Shown in pieces: positions 3,576 to 64,000 of a stretch of DNA of 64,000 nt (positions are counted from its first letter, which is position 1; the number at the start of each line of letters is the position of its first letter). Below the pieces are notes generated by a model, which saw only the letters and a program-made list of their open reading frames with translations, searched no databases and was not told the DNA's origin. Source of the stretch: Vigna angularis. Taxonomy: Eukaryota; Streptophyta; Magnoliopsida; Fabales; Fabaceae. The position numbers and the translations under genes were made by a program. The DNA lies in the NCBI RefSeq assembly GCF_016808095.1, contig NC_068971.1, positions 4,414,501 through 4,478,500 on the forward strand. Direction: 5' to 3'.

Positions 3576-5354
3576 CTACTCCAGCTTGAGTGGTTTAGTC
3601 ATTATGTCAGCTATTTGATTTTGAGTGCTGCAGTGACTTAACTTGATTTTCCCTTCCTTAACCAGATCTCTCAAGAAATGAAATCTAACATCAATATGTT
3701 TGCTTCTGCCATGCAATACTGGATTTTCTGACAACTTAATAGTTGAATTGCTATCACACATAATCAAGCTATGTTTTAATCGTTTGAAACCTATGGTCTC
3801 CAAAATTCTCATGATCCATATGCATTGACATGCACATGAAACTGCAGCTATGTATTCAGACTCTGTAGTAGACAATGTCACTATTGGTTATTTTTTGGAT
3901 GACCATGAAACTGCACCTGTTCCTAACGAAAAAACAAATCCAAATGTACTCTTTCTATCATCTACATCACTTGCATAATCACTATCTGTATAGGCCATCA
4001 AAGTTATATCTTCTCCTTTCTTGTAAAGTATTCCCAGTTCTGTAGTCCCCTTTATATACCTTAGAATCCGTTTCACAGCCTGCCAATGAATCTCTGAAGG
4101 ATTCTCCATGAATCTGCTAATGAGGCTAACCACATACATCAGGTCAGGTCGAGTTGCTGTTAGATACATGAGGCTTCCAACTGCTTGCTTGTAGAGTGTG
4201 GCATCTGCTTTAGGCCCTACATCTTTTTTGGATAATTTCATTCCTGGAACTATTGGGTTCTTCACTGCATTGCATTCCATCATGTTAAACCGAGCCAAAA
4301 CTTCCTGTGCATATTTCCTTTGACATATAAAAATGCCATATGAATTCTGCAAAACTTCAATTCCCAAAAAATACCTCATCTTCCCCAAATCAGTCATGTC
4401 AAAGGTTGACATCATAGACTCTTTAAATTCATCACACATGCCTTTATCATTGCTGGTATAAATCAAATCATCCACATATATACTTACAATAAGAATTTTA
4501 CCTTCCTTTGCTGATTTTGTGAACAAAGTGTGCTCACAAAAACATCTTTCAAAGTCATTCTGCAAGAAATATGCTTCTATTTTGTTATACCATGCTCTAG
4601 GTGCTTGTTTGAGTCCATAGAGTGCCTTCTTCAATTTATATACTTTTTCTTCCTCCCCCTTTTTGATGAATCCAGCTGGTTGTTGAACGTATATTTCCTC
4701 CTTTAGTTCTCCATGGAGGAATGCGCTTTTCACGTCTAATTGAAATATGAACCAGCCATTTTGTGCAGCCATAGATAGAATTATGCGAATAGTATCTAAT
4801 TTGGCCACAGGTGCAAATACCTCCGTGTAATCCATACCATAGTGTTGTGCATAACCTTTTGCCACTAACCTTGCTTTAAACTTGTCAACTTCACCATTCT
4901 CCTTGAGTTTTGTTTTGTAAACCCATTTCACTCCAATTGGTTTTACATCTTTGGGAGCATGAGTCAATTCCCAAGTCTGGTTTCTCTCTATAGCCTCCAT
5001 CTCTTTCACCATTGCCTCTTGCCACTTCTTATTTCTGACTGCTTCTTCATATGTTACTGGATCAGTTTCAGCTATCATAGCATCAAAGTATCTGCTTTCA
5101 CCTTCTTCATAGTCTGCCATCCACACAGGTTTTCTCCTATTTCTTCTTGTCCTCCCTTCAGTTGGAATCTCACGTATTGGGGAATGAGATTCATTTCTGG
5201 TGTGTATCTCTACAGCTACTGTTTCTATTTGTTCTTCCCTTGATTCTGCAGCTTTTGATTCTGGTTGCTCCTCCTCCACTTCAGATTCTGTTTCACTACT
5301 TTCTTCTTCTCTTTCAATAATTTCTTGATGATTTCTACTTCCTTCTGCTCCCAT
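3576..5354 (-). pseudogene. copia pol, reverse transcriptase and RNase H part (broken)
   Basis: The frame opens at 5354 in the acidic integrase-RT linker. It covers the copia RT domain (RVT_2 type): KWVYKTKLKENG, then LDVKSAFLHGEL with the first catalytic Asp, then YVDD at about residues 293-296. RNase H follows, with AYTDSDYASDVDDRKS, TESEYIAA and HGRSKHIDVRFHFL. The two pieces, 5354-3888 and 3881-3576, are in the same frame and separated by one TAA (3888-3890). CAA fits that position, so this looks like a Gln-to-stop C-to-T change. A TAG at 3576-3578, after MTKPLKLE, precedes a still copia-like tail (FLKIRSMLGM) and may be a further nonsense mutation. This is the 3' part of one ancestral gag-pol frame; its frame is offset from the integrase part upstream. 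Confidence 0.95.
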
Positions 5355-6922
5355 TTCCAGCCTTTGTTTTCTTCAAATACAACATCCTTGCTGACTATTA
5401 TTTTCTTTTTGATTGGATCAAAAAGTCTGTATGCTTTGGATTCATCACTGACTCCAAACAGAACACACAATCTGCTCTTGTTATCAAGCTTAACTCTTTG
5501 CTGATCTGGTGTGTGGACATGAGCAAGACAACCAAACACACGAAAGTAGCCAACAGATGGTTTTATTCCACTCCATGCTTCCTCTGGAGTCATATCTTGT
5601 ACTACAGATGTAGGGCATCTATTCAGAATGTGTGCACACCATTTTGTTGCTTCTGGCCAAAAGATTTTTGGAACTTGTTTTCCAATCAGCATAGTGCGAA
5701 CCATATTCATGATGGTTCTATTTTTCCTTTCAGCAACCCCATTCTGTTGGGGAGTATAGGCAGCTGTTAGTTGCCTTCTTATCCCTTGATTTCTGCAAAA
5801 TTCCTCAAATTCTTTTGAGCAGAATTCTCCTCCTCTATCAGTTCTTAAGCAAATAATGCTTTCTCCAACTTCTTTTTCAACTAGAACCTTGAAGTTTTTG
5901 AACAAAGAAAACGTTTCAGATTTCTCACTCAGAAAATATAGCCAAATCTTCCTTGTAAGGTCATCAATAAAGCTTAAAAAATATCTCTTATTGCTGCTGG
6001 AAGTTGGTTTGATTGGCCCACACAAATCTGCATGAACAAGCTGCAGTTTCCTAAATGCTCGCCATTCTCCTTTCTTAGACATAGTGAGTCTGTGCTGTTT
6101 TCCTTCCAGACATTGTGTGCATATTTCTTGAGGGGCTGTGATAGGAGGCAAACCTGTTACCATTTGCTTAGAAGCAAGATTACTCAAACCATCATAGCTT
6201 AAATGCCCGAGCCTGTTGTGCCAGAGTTGAGAATTTTTTTCTGCATTAATCTGAAAACACGTATCTGCTTCCATGGTTGCTGCTAATACAAACATCCTAC
6301 TAGAATTCATTGGAATTTCCCATAGTATTCCTTTATCAGGATGTGTAATTGTGCAAGTATTGCTTACAATTTTGATGCTCAGCCCCTTTTCCTGAAGTTG
6401 TCCTATGCTTAGCAAATTGTTTTTCAGTTCAGGAACGTAAAATACATGCGTAATAACATGCATCAATCCATTTACCTCCATTCGAATGCTCCCTTTCCCC
6501 ATCACATTTATGTGAGTATTATTTCCCAGCTTGACTTTGCCTCTAAAGTTCTCATCTAATTCTGAGAACCATTCCTTGTTGCCACTCATGTGGTTGCTGC
6601 ATCCTGAATCCAAGAACCAATCAATTTTCCTTCCTTCTTTGCTGCTCACAAGAGCCATTAGTAAAATCTCTTCCTCATGTTCTTCCATTTCTGCATAATT
6701 TGCTTTCTTCTCCCACATTGGACATTCATACTGAAAATGTCCAAGTTTATGACATTTAAAACATTCAACTTCATTTTTGTTAAATGTTTGTCTCCCTCTT
6801 CCTCTACCTCGGAAGGCTCCCCTTGTTCTCCCTCTTCCTCTGCCTCTTCCATATTTCTCCTCAAATACAGTTTGCATAACTTGCTCTTCTTCCACTGAAC
6901 ATGTCATTCGCTGCTCATGCAC
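5225..6922 (-). pseudogene. copia gag tail, protease and integrase part (frame-shifted)
   Basis: The open frame runs from about 6922 with an Arg/Gly-rich segment and a CCHC zinc knuckle (CFKCHKLGHFQYEC, about residues 54-67). The aspartic protease active site WFLDSGCSNHM has DSG at about 105-107. Then come the integrase HHCC finger (HNRLGH...CTQCLEG) and the D,D-35-E core: HADLCGP, RTDRGGEF and NGVAERKNR. The GAG-pre-integrase linker lies between protease and integrase. The frame is offset by one from gag near 6922 and again from RT near 5330. Each offset fits a loss of one base (or gain of two), because copia elements normally encode gag-pol in one frame. The catalytic residues themselves look intact. 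Confidence 0.95.
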
Positions 6923-21243: not shown

Positions 21244-21511
21244 CAACACCATCATCGACACTCCTCTTTCTCCTCCCTCCTCCAACCCCCCCGGCCCCTT
21301 CCTTTTTCTCTCTTTCCATTTTCTTCCTATTTTTTTTCTCCCGTATACAACAGTGCCACCCACTACCGCCACCTCCACCACCTCCACCACCATACTTCCA
21401 TTCCTGCAACTGTGACATCTCATACTTCCATCTAATCTCCACCAAAAAACCTAACCCTAAAAAGCAAACCTTTTTTGGTTTTTTAAATATTGTTACTTTC
21501 ACTCACCCTAG

Positions 21512-21532
21512 ATGTTAGAGCCATGGACATAA
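21512..21532 (+). promoter_or_regulatory. 6-codon upstream ORF overlapping the ZHD start codon
   Basis: ATG TTA GAG CCA TGG ACA TAA begins 11 bases before the ZHD ATG (21523), in another frame, and its stop falls 7 bases after that ATG. If the transcript starts upstream, as expected, ribosomes would meet this ATG first. The main ATG has a better context (GCCATGG) than the upstream one (TAGATGT), so leaky scanning is likely. A role in damping translation is inference. Confidence 0.5.
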
Positions 21533-22494
21533 CCCCAACAACAACCATAAACAACACCACTCCCAGTGCAACAACAAAATCCCCAGAACATGACACCGAA
21601 ACACCCACCAGGATCAACACCCCCACCGCAACCAAGGCCTTGTCTTTCTCCAACGGGGTCCTCAAGCGACACCATCACCACCACCACCACCCCATCCCCG
21701 CCGCCGTCACCTACAAGGAATGCCTCAAAAACCACGCCGCCAACTTGGGTGGGCACGCTTTAGATGGATGCGGCGAGTTCATGCCGTCCCCCACAGCCAC
21801 TGCCGCCGACCCCAGCTCCATTAAATGCGCAGCATGCGGCTGCCACCGCAACTTCCACCGCCGCGAGCCAGATGAGCCGCCCATCGCATCCACCACGCAT
21901 GTGATCGAGTACCAGCCGCACCATCGCCACCACCCTCCGCCTCCGTTCCAGGCAGCGGGGGCGAATCGAAGTCCGAATTCTGCATCCCCGCCGCCGATCT
22001 CCTCCTCTTACTACCCCTCCGCTCCGCACATGCTCCTTGCCCTTTCCGCCGGGCTCGCCGCTCCGCCTGAGAGCACGGCCGCACCCTCCGCGCTCACCAG
22101 AAAGCGCTTTAGAACCAAGTTCAGCCAGGAGCAGAAGGAGAAGATGCACAAGTTCGCTGAGAAAGTAGGGTGGAAGATGCAGAAGAGAGACGAAGATTTG
22201 ATTCACGAGTTTTGCAACGAGATTGGCGTGGATAGAAGCGTTCTCAAGGTTTGGATGCACAACAACAAAAACACCTTGGCCAAAAAAGATAATAATGTTA
22301 ATATTACTAGCAATGATAATATTACTAATAATATTAATGATAATGATGCAAATGGGGGTGTCAAGGGTTTTGAAGAAGACCCTAATAGCAACATCGGTGG
22401 TGGTGCTGAAGATCACAGTGAGGATCCGAGTCGCAATCACTTTGGTGGGTTGAACGTTGGTGCTAATGCTAACGGGTCTTCTTCTACTTCTTGA
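21523..22494 (+). CDS. ZHD: zinc-finger homeodomain (ZF-HD) transcription factor, ZHD family
   Basis: An intronless gene of 323 codons plus TGA. The start is the ATG at 21523 in a GCCATGG context; the frame stays open upstream to 21490 but without an ATG. Residues 1-48 are Thr/Asn-rich and a run of seven His follows at 50-56. The ZF-HD dimerisation finger spans about 62-118: [21 protein letters not shown], then [14 protein letters not shown] with the Cys and His ligands intact. A Pro/Ser/His-rich linker follows. The plant ZF-HD homeodomain, about 190-255, starts [13 protein letters not shown] and has recognition helix LKVWMHNNK. The tail is Asn/Asp/Gly-rich. In this family the finger mediates homo- and heterodimers and the homeodomain binds ATTA-type sites in the nucleus. 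It has typical family layout and length. Codons in the finger-linker region are much more GC-rich than the surrounding DNA. Confidence 0.96.
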
Positions 22495-25622: not shown

Positions 25623-26482
25623 CACTAGTGTAAAAACAGCGTATAATGTCACGCGTTTAACGTCTAACCACTCAATAACCAATGTTAAAAATGCCGATGA
25701 CAATTTTGTAAATAAATGTAATTATTAAACGTCGAATGCCTCAACGTTAGACGTCAAAAGGTTAGTGAATTCAATAAAAAATTGAGCAAGAGATTGAAAA
25801 TTCATTCACTTTATTTTAGCCCGTGAGACCCTCTTCTCTCCTCAAACTTTTCTCAAACGAAGTTTGACTACCACATGTAATCTTTCTTTTATTTGATACA
25901 AATGCATGTTAATTAACTACTTTAGGTATGATTTTCATTTGTTTTCGACGATTATTTTCGTGTTATTGTCCTTCATATGTGCATTCTGTTTTCTCTCTCA
26001 CTGATGGGAACACTTTATTCCGATGAATCCACCTTTTGAAGGTTAGTTTTCATTTTCGTTTTGAAGAACTTATTTGTTGAATTGTTTGTTATTTTTTTTT
26101 TTGAATTTGTTTGTTGTTGTTGTTTGGTTGAACTTATTTGTTGTTATTGTTTAATTGAACTTGTTTGTTGTTTAATTGAACTTGTTTGTTGTTTGTTATT
26201 GTTATTTGTTGTTGATCTTATATTACCGTTCATAGTTCTACTTTTTAGGTCTCGGAGAGTTGTGAAAAATTATTACAATTTAAAAAAAAAATTGATTAAC
26301 GTCGTATATTGACAAAATTCGACCTTAGATTAACGTCGTATATTAACAAAATTCGACATTAAATTAACGTCGAATTTTTTTAAATTTGACGTCAATTTAA
26401 CGTCTCCCGATATGACGTCGTTCTCGAATTCGACATGAAAGACAAAAAATATTCAACGTTGGACGTTGTTTTTATACTAGTG
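25623..26482. mobile_element. non-autonomous CACTA element, 860 bp, with exact TSD
   Basis: The ends are CACTAGTGTAAAAACAGCG (left) and CACTAGTATAAAAACAACG (right, complement), 17 of 19 matching. The 3-bp target duplication AGT is exact (25620-25622 and 26483-26485). Subterminal regions are packed with AACGTC/GACGTT words, the expected multiple transposase-binding repeats. The middle holds a TTGTTTGTTG-type low-complexity stretch (about 26060-26220) and no transposase. Mobility would need an autonomous partner. Confidence 0.9.
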
Positions 26483-33149: not shown

Positions 33150-34000
33150 AGAGTTCTTTTTCGAACTTCTTGCATTGAGCGAGGATTTCTGAAGCCCTTT
33201 TACGGACTTCCCCCTAGCGACTTGAGGCAGGAGTTATTTTTCTAACTTCCTCCGTTGAGCGGGGATTTCTGAAGTCATTTTTATAACTTCCCCCCGAGCG
33301 GTCTTGAGGCAGGAGTTATGTTTCTAACTTCGTGCGTTGAGCGGAGAATTCTGAAGCCCTTTTTCGGACTTCCCCCTAGTGGCTTGAGGTAGGAGTTATT
33401 TTTATCACTTCCTGCGTTGAGCGAGGATTTCTGAAGTCATTTTTCTGACTTTCCCTCGAGCGGTCTTGAGGCAGGTGTTATTTTTCTAACTTCCTGCGTT
33501 GAGCGGAGATTTCTGAAGTCATTTTTCTGACTTCCCCCGAGCGGTCTTGAGGTAGAAGTCATTTTTTTGACTTCCTATGTTGAGCGAGGATTTCTGAAGT
33601 CATTTTTCTGACTTCCTACGTTGAGCGGAGATTTCTGAAGTCATTTTTCTGACTTCCCCCTGAGCGGCTTGAGGCAGGAGTCATTTTTCTGACTTCCTAC
33701 ATTGAGCGGGGATTTCTGAAATCATTTTTCTGAGTTCCCCCGAGTTGTCTTGAGGCAGAAGTCATTTCTCTGACTTCCTACGTTGAGCGGGGATTTCTGA
33801 AGTCATTTTTCTGACTTCCCCCCGAGCGATCTTGAGGGGTAGGAGTCATTTTTCTGACTTCCTCCGTTGAACGGGGATTTCTGAGGTCGTTTTTCTGACT
33901 TCCCCCCGAGCGGCTTGAGGCAGGACTCATTTTTCTGACTTCCTGCGTTGAGCGGGGATTTCTGAAGTCATTTTTCTGACTTCTCCCGAGCGGCCATTAT
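33150..34000 (-). repeat. tandem array A, about 82-bp units with paired hairpins
   Basis: About eleven units of roughly 82 bp, one shortened to about 40, each with GAGCGGGGATTTCTGAAGTC and CTTGAGGCAGGAGT blocks. Most units contain GAAGTCA-(TTTTTC)-TGACTTC, a perfect 7-bp stem with a 6-base loop, and often a second related stem (AGGAGTCA...TGACTTCCT). The leftmost units carry the variants GAAGCCC...GGACTTC and GAGTTA...TAACTTC, so stem sequence varies while pairing is partly retained. Confidence 0.9.
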
Positions 34001-53381: not shown

Positions 53382-54050
53382 TATTACTACAAAAATAAGT
53401 TTTAGCGTCTATTACTTCCAACCTTTGACGTCAATCCAAACTTGAACGTCTTAGTCGAAGATGTCAATTTGATATTGGTGTGACAAAACGATGTTAACCC
53501 TGAGTCAAATCAATGTCCATTAATGACAGATAAAAGGAAACTGACATCCAACAGCGTTCAGGAGAAAAGAGAATTCACCGTTGTTCAAACACTAGTAAAA
53601 AATAGGTTTTTAACTCGCCTAATAGGCTTCGGTCAAAAAAAACCGAAACATATCCAAAAACGGTGGCAATCTTATAGTTTAGACGAATTTATATGCCCCG
53701 GTTTGTGAAGAACCGAAGTATGTAGTGCATATTACCTCGGTTCAAACCATAACCGATGCCTAATACTATGTAAAAAAAGTCACTTGACCCTCTGCAAAAC
53801 TTTATTTTGGCCTGACATGTGATCCAATGCTTCGGTTCTAAACAGAACCGGTGTTGAAATAGGTTTATGCCTCGGTTAGTGCAGAACTGAGGCCTAAGAG
53901 TCTGTCAAATCAGTGCCTTAAACCCTACTGCTCATTTCTTCTACTACTCAAACCCTACTGCTCACTTCTTCACCCAGGTTCCTTCCACAACTAAACCACA
54001 TCACTGCCAACCCCAAATCTGCCACCGTTTCCATAAAGAAATCCAATGAT

Positions 54051-54356
54051 TATGCAGTCGGCGTGAAAGGCGTGGCAGCATATAGGGAGGAGGTCGTGGT
54101 GGTGGAACTTGGAGAGGCAGACCGCGTAGTCGGGGGCGGCGGAGGAAGAGTGGCGCGTGACGGAGGAGAACGTGAATAATGGCAGCGTGTTGATGACTAA
54201 GGCAGCGACGATGGCGGTGGACGAGGAGTAGACAATCTCCGGTGAGATGCGGCGGTTGGAGGAGAATATAGGTGTGGCGTAGGCGTATGCGGAGGACGCG
54301 GCGGAGGAGGAGGAGAAGCGACGGAGGCAGCGACGATTGAGGTGGCGGAGGAGGAA
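54051..54356 (-). pseudogene. captured fragment of an ATL-type RING-H2 ubiquitin ligase
   Basis: One minus-strand frame reads FLLRHLNRRCLRRF, then a Ser/Ala-rich stretch. Then comes ISPEIVYSSSTAIVAALV and the family-typical LPLFTFSSVTRHSSSAA, followed by a RING part YAVCLSKFHHHDLLPICCHAF and HADCI. Homology then ends before the expected DTWL. ATL proteins are membrane-anchored E3 ligases whose RING-H2 binds zinc and the E2. Here the first zinc Cys (normally CAVCL) is Tyr, about three residues are missing before the CCHAFH motif, and the last zinc ligands and the N-terminal membrane helix are absent, so no working ligase is possible. The longer overlapping ORF in another frame (54001-54450) is a shadow. 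Confidence 0.8.
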
Positions 54357-54371
54357 GTGAACGACGCGGGG

Positions 54372-54839
54372 ACGTGGGGCCTTGTGGTTGTTTTTTTCTT
54401 ATTTCAGAGTTTGGGTTTGTGTTGTTCTTTGAATGAAGAAGGTACTTCACTAGTGGTGGGATTTTTGGGTTTGAGGAATTTGGATGATGCTGAAACGTGG
54501 TTTCTGTGTGCAGGTAATGCTCTTTTGAAGTTCAGGCAGAGAATAGTGAGTGACCCTTTTGGTGCTTTGTCAAATTGGGTGGATGATGATTCATCTTTTG
54601 ACCCTTGTAATTGGTTTGGAGTTGAGTGCTCAGATGGAAGAGTTGTGGCATTGTAAGTGTTGATTTTTTTAACCCTTTTTCTCAGAAACTACTTATTTGT
54701 AACCAATGCTGTTTTGAACAATAGTTTCCTCTGTTTTGAAATTTTACTTAAGTGATTTTGTGCTCAAGAATTTGAAGGATCTCTGCCTTGAAGGAACTCT
54801 GGCACTTGAGCTTGTGAAACTTATCCACATAAATTCTAG
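54372..54839 (+). pseudogene. captured 5' fragment of a MALE DISCOVERER/MRH1-like LRR receptor kinase
   Basis: Exon 1 (about 54372-54441) encodes a signal-peptide-like stretch (WGLVVVFFLFQSLGLCCSLNEE). An intron 54442-54513 has GT...CAG ends. Exon 2 (54514-54652) encodes NALLKFRQRIVSDPFGALSN and DPCNWFGVECSDGRVVAL, the LRRNT_2 cap. A second intron starts GTAAGT at 54653. Exon 3 (about 54768-54839) encodes one leucine-rich repeat, NLKDLCLEGTL...ELVKLIHI, with a size fitting the 72-base LRR exons of these genes. The acceptor of intron 2 reads CTCAA/G, where AG is expected, so it appears mutated. Everything downstream (further LRRs, membrane helix, kinase) is missing. Retained introns show a DNA-level copy, not a reverse-transcribed one. 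Confidence 0.82.
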
Positions 54840-55941
54840 AGATTCAATATGACTGGCTAAAGAAGAAGAAAAAAAAATAAAAAAAAGGACCCTACTGCCT
54901 CGGATCAAGCTCCAACCGAGGCAGTAGAGGGGGAGAAACGACTTCGGTTCATCAGGAATCGAGGTATAATCCTACCATTTTATGCTTCGGTTCTGAACCG
55001 AGGCATAAAGTCTACCACTTTTTACCTCGCCTGAATATGCCTCGGTTCAGGAACCGGTGCCTATCAGCGAAAATAACCGCTGTCGTTTCCCCTGACTGCA
55101 CTAGTGAAAATAGTATCCTATGTACAAAAACAATCAGTCAATTGAAATAAAATCATACTCACAAAATTCAATGAACATGCATTTGTGTTAAGGGAAGCAG
55201 AAATTACCTATGGTGGTCACGAAAGTTGTCACCGGACTGTGTTCGAAACCTTGAGTGCGCATGCAGAAACAATAGCTAAACAATGTTCTATGCACGAAAA
55301 TAATCGGTCAAATAAAAGAAAATCATACCAAACAACCCAATGAATGTGCATTTGTAACAATGATCATGCAAAAATTGTAAACGAAACACACATTCTCATA
55401 CTAAGTTTTAAGTGATATAACACCCTTAAACGTTGGATGCCCTAATGGCCTCTGTCTAAGGTGGTATTTGGATAGCAAAACATTTGTTTTGTCCAGGTTT
55501 TGAATCATGACATTAAAGGTCAATGACAAACCCTATCCTGGCCAACGTCATATGTATTGTCTAAGCTCGACACTACTCAACAGCTTGTCAACCCGAGCTC
55601 ATTGGTTTCACAAGCTAAGCTCGACATGAGATCGACCTCAATTGGGATGACGGTGGGCTACAAAAACTGACTTCAAACCTGGCTATGATGTTGACGAGAT
55701 TTGTGATTGACATTTATTTCATCAGCTTTTAACAAAGCTACAACTCGACAGAAAATCGACCTCAAATTGGAAGACAATATGCTACAAAAACTGACTTCGA
55801 TTTGGTGACATTGGTCGAGCTTTGTGGTAGACATCTAATCATTATTTTATTTACAACACTACCATTGATCATTTTTTATGCTGGTTGGTTGCCAGTCTAA
55901 CATTGAACGAGGGATGTTAAAATCTTGATTTATCATTAGTG

Positions 55942-62196: not shown

Positions 62197-64000
62197 TGTA
62201 AGACCCGTAATTTTGGGACATGGTGGGGACATGGTAGTTACCCACCTTTTTCATTATTGGAAGCAATTATTGGAGGTGCATTTACGGGGAAGCTTAGCAA
62301 GGGAGGGATTCATTTTTTTTGTGGGCATGTGAGAAAGAAAGAGGGAGAGAGCAGCCAAGGGAGGAAACCTTCCTTCCTTCCATTTCCAGCCGTCCAAAGA
62401 GCACCCATGGAAACTGTACCAACTTCAGAAGGGCTGAGAGGTAGATCTGGGTTGGGCATCTGGTGAGGGTGGAGTTCTTGCAGCAAGATCGGGAGAGAAA
62501 GTGGAGAGCTGATGAATTTGCTAGGAGAACTAGAGCTGCATGTCTAGGAGGAGATAGATCCCAAAATTTTCAAGGAAGTCTTCAAGAGGTAAGGGGAGTT
62601 TGATTTATTTCATTAATTGTTGGTATAATCTGTATTTTGATGCAAATTTGGGAAGAAGGGGTTGAAAATGGGGTTTTCTGGGTTTCTCTAGAATCTGCGC
62701 GATTCTGCAGAATTCTGCAGAATGCGCGTACGTCCAATTTTAGTGAGTCAAAATTGGACGTTCGTTCCAACAGTGCTCGACCAAATAGTGGTCGGCCAAA
62801 TTTATGGACGTTTGGTAATTGTTCTGAGCGTCCGTCCGAATCAGCGAACTTGGGAACGTTCGGTCTTTTAAAGCTAGCGAACATTAGCGTTCGTCCTTGG
62901 TCTACAATAGTAATATTAGCGTTCGTTCAGGGCTTATTTAATACCGTTCGGTTGGAATCTAAAATTAATAGTGTTCGGTTAGGTGTGAATTTAACATTGT
63001 TCGGTTTAATCGCTCGTCCAGGATTCTAGACGTTCGTCCAAATGATTGTGAGCGTTCGTTAGCAATTGGTAATCCAGGTTCAACTTGAGCGTCCGTCCCT
63101 AAATTGGCATCCACTAGGAGTGGTCTTGGACGTTCGGTATTGAGTATTAGTGATTGGTGGCGTTCGTCCTTTATATGGATTCTTAGGAGTGATTACTGAG
63201 CGTTCGGCTTTTGAGTATTAGTGAGCGTTCGGCTTTTGATTATAGTGAGCGTTCGTCCATAAGTGTTATTTGAACGTTCGTCCTTAAGTGTTATAGTGAG
63301 CGTTCGTCCTCAAAGTGTTATTGTGAGCGTTCGTCCTTTAGTGTTATAGTGAGCGTTCGTCCTTAAGTGTTATTGTGAGCGTACGTCCATAAGTGCTATA
63401 TTGGGCGTTCGTCCATAAGGGTTATATGGGGCGTTCGTCCATAATTGTCATTTTGAGCGTTCGTCCATAATTGTTATTTTGAACGTTCGATTTCGTATGA
63501 GGCGAGCGTTAGCATTCGTCCTTCATGTTGAGTGTAACGTTCGACCTTGGTTTAATTGTGTTAGTGAGCGTTCATCCTTAAGCTGGTATTCTTAGGTTTT
63601 AATCTTGGACGTTCGGTTTTGATGTATTAGGGTACGCTCGACCTCAGTGTATTAGAGATTTTCTAGCGTTCGCGCAAATAGTGATCAGTCAAATGGAGTT
63701 CAGAAAATATGTTGGTAGTTAGCGTTCGTTCTTGGTAGTAGCGTTCGGTCTTAATCATGTTTAGGCTTAGGCATTTAGCGTTCGTCCTTGTCTGGAGAGC
63801 GTTCGTCCTGCGTTCGTCCTTGTCTGGAGAGCGTTCGGTTTAAGGGGATGAGATTGATAGCGTCCGGTCATTGATCTAAATAACGATCGCTCAATGTTGT
63901 GGTTTAGTAGCGATCGCTCAGGTGTTGGTTAGTAGTGTTCGTTCATTCGCTGGTTTAGGAGTGTTCAGTCAGTTGATGGTTTAATAAGCGTTCGTCCAAA
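62197..64000 (+). mobile_element. LTR-type repetitive element, truncated by the window end
   Basis: Starts TGTAAGACCCGTAATTTTGG, a common start of long legume LTRs, directly after TTCAA (possible target duplication; the other end lies outside). The first 500 bp are GC-balanced and unlike the flank, and include tandem ATTCTGCAGA words near 62700. From about 62735 the sequence is dominated by GCGTTCGTCC/GCGTTCGGT words. ORFs here (62257-62466, 62637-63029) show no protein family features. A long LTR or the 5' part of a Ty3/gypsy-type element is the likeliest reading. Confidence 0.5.
63198..63490 (+). repeat. tandem array, 24-27-bp units starting GAGCGTTCGTCC
   Basis: About twelve consecutive units: GAGCGTTCG plus TCC or GCT, then a variable TTAAGTGTTATAGT-like tail. 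The same core continues irregularly on both sides (62760-64000), with roughly thirty GTTCG cores in all. Confidence 0.9.

What the first reader, a model, noticed from the sequence alone, without database searches (positions are those of the whole stretch)
53590..55106. Pack-CACTA holding pieces of two unrelated host genes in opposite orientation
The sequence shows CACTA ends with matching flanking triplets. Inside are an ATL RING-H2 fragment on the minus strand and an LRR receptor-kinase 5' fragment, with introns, on the plus strand, separated by about 15 bp. Two independent captures in one 1.5-kb element are uncommon. Any transcript through it would be antisense to one gene family and sense to another, a possible small-RNA source acting on ATL and receptor-kinase genes (inference).
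Basis: partly seen in the sequence, partly recalled or inferred. Interest (0 to 1): 0.75.

Follow-up and report, generated by a model that had tools for sequence, protein, structure and literature searches.

The report
Two-gene Pack-CACTA transposon family, Vigna-like
A small plant jumping gene carries broken pieces of two unrelated host genes, and relatives of the same patchwork appear among the listed proteins of adzuki bean and rice bean; such gene-scavenging transposons are already well known.

Summary
Window 53590-55106 is a 1,517-bp non-autonomous CACTA element: CACTAGT ends, AAA/AAA flanks, and 7+7 subterminal CCTCGGTT-type repeats that 0 of 1,000 shuffles of either end reached. It holds an ATL4-like RING-H2 fragment (minus, 54051-54356) and the 5' part of a MALE DISCOVERER/MRH1-type receptor kinase gene (plus, 54381-54837), 24 bp apart. 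With exon borders set by hand, the receptor piece matches Vigna angularis LR48_Vigan07g058100 at 87 of 90 residues. Both genes are cut inside coding sequence at the join, so they are not natural neighbours. New here: five short Vigna "proteins" look like translations of sister copies. Three carry the antisense receptor piece and three the transposon piece beside ATL (E<=1e-6); one carries both. Most simply, the patchwork was built once and then copied. One entry is named an E3 ubiquitin protein but has no Pfam RING. Multi-gene capture by CACTA elements is known (soybean Tgm-Express1; maize Pack-CACTA), so 'uncommon' is not supported. The small-RNA idea is untested. New member of a known kind; modest interest. 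The own genome could not be searched.

The parts
53590..55106 (.). Non-autonomous Pack-CACTA element, 1517 bp
   Evidence: CACTAGT ends, subterminal repeats, flanking triplets, captured host sequence
53587..53589 (.). AAA, left copy of presumed 3-bp target duplication
   Evidence: sequence; weak on its own; no empty site seen
55107..55109 (.). AAA, right copy of presumed 3-bp target duplication
   Evidence: sequence
53590..53596 (+). left terminal inverted repeat CACTAGT
55100..55106 (-). right terminal inverted repeat ACTAGTG
53590..53905 (.). left subterminal region, 7 CCTCGGTT-type repeats in both orientations
   Evidence: 7 observed, shuffle mean 0.2, 0 of 1000 reach 7
54881..55106 (.). 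right subterminal region, 7 CCTCGGTT-type repeats in both orientations
   Evidence: 7 observed, shuffle mean 0.28, 0 of 1000 reach 7; also inverted repeats
53906..54050 (.). internal element sequence left of the ATL piece; part of its minus-strand translation recurs after the ATL piece in Vigna proteins P0002, P0004, P0014 (P0001 and P0015 only weakly)
54051..54356 (-). captured fragment of an ATL4-like RING-H2 E3 ligase gene: from the end of the transmembrane segment to the middle of the RING, with the first RING Cys as Tyr and a 3-residue gap before LLP against P0003
54357..54380 (.). 24-bp spacer at the ATL/LRR join
54381..54441 (+). captured MRH1/MALE DISCOVERER-type LRR receptor kinase, part of exon 1 (signal peptide region)
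54442..54513 (+). intron 1, 72 bp, GT...AG intact
54514..54652 (+). exon 2, LRRNT_2 domain
   Evidence: Pfam PF08263 E 1.6e-11
54653..54767 (+). intron 2, GT donor present, in-frame acceptor reads AA not AG
54768..54837 (+). exon 3 piece, first leucine-rich repeat; homology stops after INS

Best explanation
This is one decayed copy of a multi-copy, non-autonomous Pack-CACTA family in a Vigna (or very close) genome. A CACTA element lacking its own transposase picked up genomic DNA (introns included) from an ATL4-like gene and from a MALE DISCOVERER/MRH1-type receptor kinase gene, joined head to head. The finished patchwork was then copied to other loci, presumably by transposase supplied in trans acting on the CACTA ends and the subterminal CCTCGGTT repeats. 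Shown: ends, repeats, both fragments, truncation of both genes at the join, and the same neighbouring blocks in database proteins of V. angularis and V. umbellata. Inferred: that those proteins come from CACTA elements, transposition in trans, the way of capture (gap repair with template switching, or fusion of neighbouring elements), a single ATL capture before spread, and silencing. It most likely does nothing for the host as a protein; it is ordinary transposon cargo.
For: Ends and subterminal repeats. LRR piece 87 of 90 residues identical to V. angularis LR48_Vigan07g058100, residues 19-108 of 637, with introns retained. ATL piece: 18 proteins at E<=0.01 among 54 candidates, of which 12 carry precomputed RING domains, 5 are Vigna entries without any, and 1 is a Dipteronia entry without any. 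Sister copies: of 112 proteins (all) compared with the LRR part and the left internal part of the element, P0001, P0002 and P0015 carry the antisense LRR block (E 2.5e-9, 8.7e-16, 6e-7) and P0002, P0004, P0014 the element block (7.7e-9, 5.5e-7, 3.7e-7), in the same protein as the ATL piece; the other 107 have no match at E<=1e-6. In these five and in the window the ATL likeness begins, judged by eye, at the same FLL residues, where P0003, P0016, P0019, P0020 and P0022 have a Cys just before (15 proteins looked at, 5 ATL4-like ones gave no match to the pattern used). 0 of 5 Vigna proteins match a Pfam family at E<=0.01. No ORF of >=150 aa lies in the element; the window's four such ORFs are retrotransposon (2), a ZF-HD gene and a frame antisense to it.
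Against: The terminal inverted repeat is short (7 bp) and AAA/AAA is a low-complexity triplet; 9 of 100 shuffles give as many end+triplet pairs. Sister copies are seen only as annotated proteins, not as DNA with CACTA ends. For P0001 and P0015 the left-block match (E 7e-4, 2e-3) is within the noise of the control, and P0004 and P0014 show no LRR block. In P0015 some 65 residues lie between the LRR block and the ATL block, and its ATL likeness is 33 of 75; in P0014 only 37 residues align cleanly. The ATL4 donor of the host was not recovered (the searches limit protein length), and the own genome could not be searched.
Confidence: 0.9

Rival explanations
1. Two captures made independently in this single element copy, with the Vigna proteins being unrelated captures of the same ATL4 gene.
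For: ATL block identity between window and P0001/P0002/P0004 is only 72 of 86, 67 of 86 and 61 of 82, lower than the 87 of 90 of the LRR block to its host gene. P0004 and P0014 show no LRR block.
Against: Same ATL start point, by eye, in 5 of 5 Vigna proteins and the window; antisense LRR exon 1 sequence in the same protein as ATL in P0001, P0002, P0015. The ATL block is CpG-rich (32 CpG in 312 bp against 1 in 456 bp of the LRR block), so faster decay there would not be surprising.
Confidence: 0.06
2. A functional locus (compatible with the best explanation): transcripts through the element feed small RNAs that lower ATL4-like and MDIS2/MRH1-like host transcripts, or the composite is an emerging chimeric gene.
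For: 87 of 90 residues shared with the V. angularis receptor gene make long exact nucleotide matches likely (inferred). Captured sequences of maize Helitrons, Pack-MULEs and Sireviruses were reported as siRNA reservoirs (passage of the review PMC13317346); CACTA elements are not named in that passage.
Against: No ATG in either long stop-free frame of this copy, lost intron 2 acceptor, RING cut and first Cys lost. The sister copies differ and have internal gains and losses. No expression data available.
Confidence: 0.06
3. Not a transposon: a chance CACTA pair around a local duplication or pseudogene cluster.
For: Ends plus triplet alone are not rare in such sequence.
Against: 14 of 31 window hits of the subterminal motif fall in 542 bp at the two ends; 0 of 1000 shuffles each. 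The blocks recur together in Vigna proteins from different contigs.
Confidence: 0.02

Closest known systems
Tgm-Express1 (soybean CACTA element with five host gene fragments)
   Same: Legume CACTA element carrying exonic and intronic pieces of several unrelated host genes (PMC1947982, abstract and Background read).
   Different: 5.7 kb against 1.5 kb; the soybean (Tgmt*) subterminal motifs TTGGCAG and AATCTTACAG (passages of PMC2613891) occur once (minus, 54004, not subterminal) and not at all here; so it looks like a different CACTA subfamily.
Pack-CACTA / Pack-TYPE transposons (Arabidopsis, rice, maize)
   Same: Non-autonomous CACTA ends around host coding DNA, more than one locus in one element (PMC8903248, passages and section 10 read).
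   Different: Other species and cargo; here the ends begin CACTAGT rather than the CACTACAA used for Arabidopsis (same paper).
pvCACTA1 (common bean)
   Same: Small non-autonomous CACTA family of a bean (PMC4938662, passages read).
   Different: pvCACTA1 has 145-158 bp terminal inverted repeats; here 7 bp exact and 43 of 150 matches end to end.
MALE DISCOVERER 2 / MRH1 / At3g56050-type receptor kinase genes
   Same: Donor family of the LRR piece (names given by the sources).
   Different: Only the part matching residues 19-108 of 637 is present; no kinase.
ATL4 RING-H2 E3 ubiquitin ligases
   Same: Donor family of the minus-strand piece.
   Different: N-terminus, half the RING and the C-terminus missing.

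Membership tests
CACTA (En/Spm) superfamily | 5'-CACTA...TAGTG-3' termini | tested here: met
CACTA (En/Spm) superfamily | 3-bp target site duplication | tested here: inconclusive
   AAA/AAA flanks match but 9 of 100 shuffles give as many end+triplet pairs; no empty site available
CACTA (En/Spm) superfamily | subterminal repeats in both orientations near both ends | tested here: met
   7+7 hits, 0 of 1000 shuffles each
CACTA (En/Spm) superfamily | transposase in trans and actual mobility | not testable with these tools
Pack-TYPE (Pack-CACTA) | host coding DNA inside, no transposase | tested here: met
   cargo; no ORF of >=150 aa; of the shorter frames only three cargo frames were run against Pfam, without a transposase match
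Pack-TYPE (Pack-CACTA) | donor genes exist outside the element | tested here: inconclusive
Pack-TYPE (Pack-CACTA) | more than one copy of the element | tested here: inconclusive
Tgm / Tgm-Express subfamily | subterminal motif TTGGCAG / AATCTTACAG | tested here: not met
pvCACTA1 | terminal inverted repeats of 145-158 bp | tested here: not met
small-RNA regulatory locus | siRNAs from the interval that act on donor genes | not testable with these tools
   no RNA data

The most novel reading that the evidence does not exclude
A Vigna Pack-CACTA lineage that was put together stepwise: one ATL4 capture shared by all copies seen, then a receptor-kinase piece present in one class (window, P0001, P0002, P0015) and not seen in another (P0004, P0014), and amplified in Asian Vigna, with copies entered in databases as proteins. 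In its boldest form its head-to-head cargo yields small RNAs that act on both an E3 ligase family and a MALE DISCOVERER/MRH1-type receptor kinase family (pollen-tube and root-hair roles recalled from the names, from no call).
Probability: 0.08. Interest if true: 0.6.

Novelty: new member of a known kind. Interest (0 to 1): 0.3.

Why it matters
It adds a legume example in which likely sister copies suggest that a two-gene patchwork was built once and then spread, and it explains five Vigna database proteins, one named an E3 ubiquitin protein, as likely transposon cargo. If nucleotide copies confirm two classes, the family would allow the order of captures to be read, which bears on how Pack-CACTA elements acquire genes.

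Tried and rejected
Natural adjacency of the two genes: rejected, both are cut inside coding sequence at the join. One continuous plus-strand coding gene (136-codon frame 54246-54656, open through intron 1 because that intron is 72 bp): rejected, no ATG in frame and its first part is antisense ATL. The internal CACTAGTG at 54448 (inside intron 1) as an element end: rejected, no matching triplet for 53590-54455 or 54448-55106. Other copies inside the window: none found; outside itself the element has no BLASTN hit in the window better than E 0.02, the hits being 14-48 bases long. Rfam at gathering scores: 0 matches over the window. An insertion of about 8 residues in the ATL piece as a mark of the family: dropped, 22 of 113 aligned sequences have letters at all 8 columns. 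C-to-T decay as a sign of methylation: only suggestive; changes go both ways between copies. Papers: the searches 'Pack-CACTA', 'CACTA, gene fragments, captured, legume', 'Vigna, CACTA, gene fragments', 'Vigna angularis, CACTA', 'Tgm-Express' and 'CACTA, ATL, receptor-like kinase, gene fragments' listed no title or abstract start that describes this family; this covers only the held open-licence library, and of the listed papers I read passages or sections of eight.

Full report
What is there. The reported interval 53590-55106 starts CACTAGT and ends ACTAGTG, with AAA on both sides. The exact terminal repeat is 7 bp, 8 of 13 bases. Such ends with a matching triplet are not rare enough to prove a transposon: among 35 end pairs of at least 7 matched bases in the window, 2 have matching triplets, and 9 of 100 dinucleotide shuffles of the window reach 2 as well. 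The subterminal parts decide it. Hits to CCTCGGTT on either strand, with at most one mismatch, number 7 in 53590-53905 and 7 in 54881-55106; that is 14 of the 31 in 64 kb, and 0 of 1000 shuffles of either part reached 7. Closely spaced direct and inverted subterminal repeats are a mark of CACTA elements (passages of PMC2613891, and PMC8978399).

The plus-strand cargo. With exon borders set by hand, 54381-54441, 54514-54652 and 54768-54837 give a peptide that matches V. angularis LR48_Vigan07g058100 at 87 of 90 positions, residues 19-108 of 637, and a common bean and a cowpea protein at 81 and 80 of 90. The sources name relatives MALE DISCOVERER 2, MRH1 or At3g56050-like. The piece covers the signal peptide region, LRRNT_2 (Pfam E 1.6e-11) and the first leucine-rich repeat, with two introns, so genomic DNA was captured. 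Intron 1 keeps GT...AG; intron 2 keeps GT but has AA where the in-frame AG should be. A V. mungo gene model contains a translation of part of the same intron 1, IWMRLKRGFCVQ against IWMMLKRGFCVQ here.

The minus-strand cargo. From 54356 down to 54051 the sequence encodes a fragment of an ATL4-like RING-H2 protein, from the end of the transmembrane segment to the middle of the RING. The RING scores are below the Pfam cut-offs. The first Cys of the RING is Tyr here. Between the two homologies lie 24 bp. The two genes point away from each other and each is cut inside coding sequence: the LRR gene lacks its first 18 codons (against LR48_Vigan07g058100), the ATL gene its N-terminus. They are not normal neighbours.

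Likely sister copies. The search with the ATL frame gave 18 proteins at E<=0.01 among 54 candidates; five of the 18 are Vigna entries without a Pfam domain (P0001, P0002, P0004, P0014 V. angularis; P0015 V. umbellata, by the names the sources give). P0001 is named 'E3 ubiquitin-protein'. I compared all 112 proteins from these two searches with the LRR part and with the element sequence left of the ATL piece. At E<=1e-6 the LRR part, read antisense, is found in 3 of 112 (P0001, P0002, P0015) and the left part in 3 of 112 (P0002, P0004, P0014). P0001 and P0015 have weak left matches (7e-4, 2e-3) at the expected place, but unrelated proteins reach such values too (down to 1.4e-4), so these two are inconclusive. 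P0002 holds the three blocks in order. In P0015 about 65 residues lie between the LRR and ATL blocks, and in P0014 only 37 ATL residues align cleanly. In these five and in the window the ATL likeness starts, by eye, at the same FLL residues. P0004 and P0014 come from one naming series (HKW66) on contigs of different length, so one genome probably has at least two loci (inference). Pairwise likeness within the ATL block runs from 61 of 82 to 73 of 86 for the window, P0001, P0002 and P0004, so they are hardly alleles of one locus.

How it most likely works. A transposase-less CACTA element acquired two pieces of host DNA and was then mobilised in trans. Published models are fusion of neighbouring elements (PMC8903248 passages; PMC13317346 passages) and, from recall, interrupted gap repair with template switching; PMC8978399 cites Rubin and Levy for a mechanism (passage). 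The data do not separate them. The ATL block differs more between copies than the LRR block differs from its host gene. This fits its CpG richness (32 CpG in 312 bp, against 1 in 456 bp of the LRR block) but could also mean that the ATL piece is older. P0004 and P0014 lack the LRR block in their gene models, which would fit ATL first and LRR later; gene-model splicing could give the same picture. Transcripts from the left would be antisense ATL then sense LRR; P0001, P0002 and P0015 read the other strand, antisense LRR into sense ATL. Neither long stop-free frame in this copy has an ATG.

Comparison. Soybean Tgm-Express1 carries five gene fragments in 5.7 kb (PMC1947982). [quoted passage not shown] So the kind is known. 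The motif here is not that of the soybean Tgmt* family, and the ends are not those of pvCACTA1 (motifs from passages). CACTA elements are common in Vigna: 5.7% of transposon sequence in cowpea (PMC6852540 passage), and they are listed for adzuki bean (PMC5389050 passage).

Limits. The species is inferred, not known: the LRR piece is closest to V. angularis among the 58 proteins. Sister copies are seen only as proteins. No RNA data were at hand.

Noticed in passing
window 25623-26482: A second CACTA-like element of 860 bp: ends CACTAGTGTAAAA/CACTAGTATAAAA (12 of 13), AGT on both sides, with AACGTC/GACGTC repeats near both ends seen by eye.
   Followed up: partly
window 53385-53589: By eye, the left flank of the element starts ...CTACAAAAATAAG and has GACGTC-type repeats like those of the element at 25623; the Pack-CACTA may have landed in or beside a remnant of that other family.
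   Followed up: no
window 55118-55360 and 25865-25962: A roughly 170-bp tandem pair right of the element matches, inverted, a stretch at 25865-25962.
   Followed up: no
window 3888-6922, minus: Ty1/copia-type pol frames (RVT_2, integrase, Pol_BBD) in two overlapping frames.
   Followed up: partly
window 21490-22494, plus: ZF-HD-type gene (ZF-HD_dimer E 2.5e-28).
   Followed up: no
window 33151-33994 and 63187-63983: Long tandem arrays (units of about 41/82/122/162 bp and of 19-26 bp).
   Followed up: no
proteins P0002 and P0015: The ATL/LRR join region looks expanded in sister copies as repeats of RPRAV-like residues, as if a 15-bp unit at the join had multiplied.
   Followed up: no
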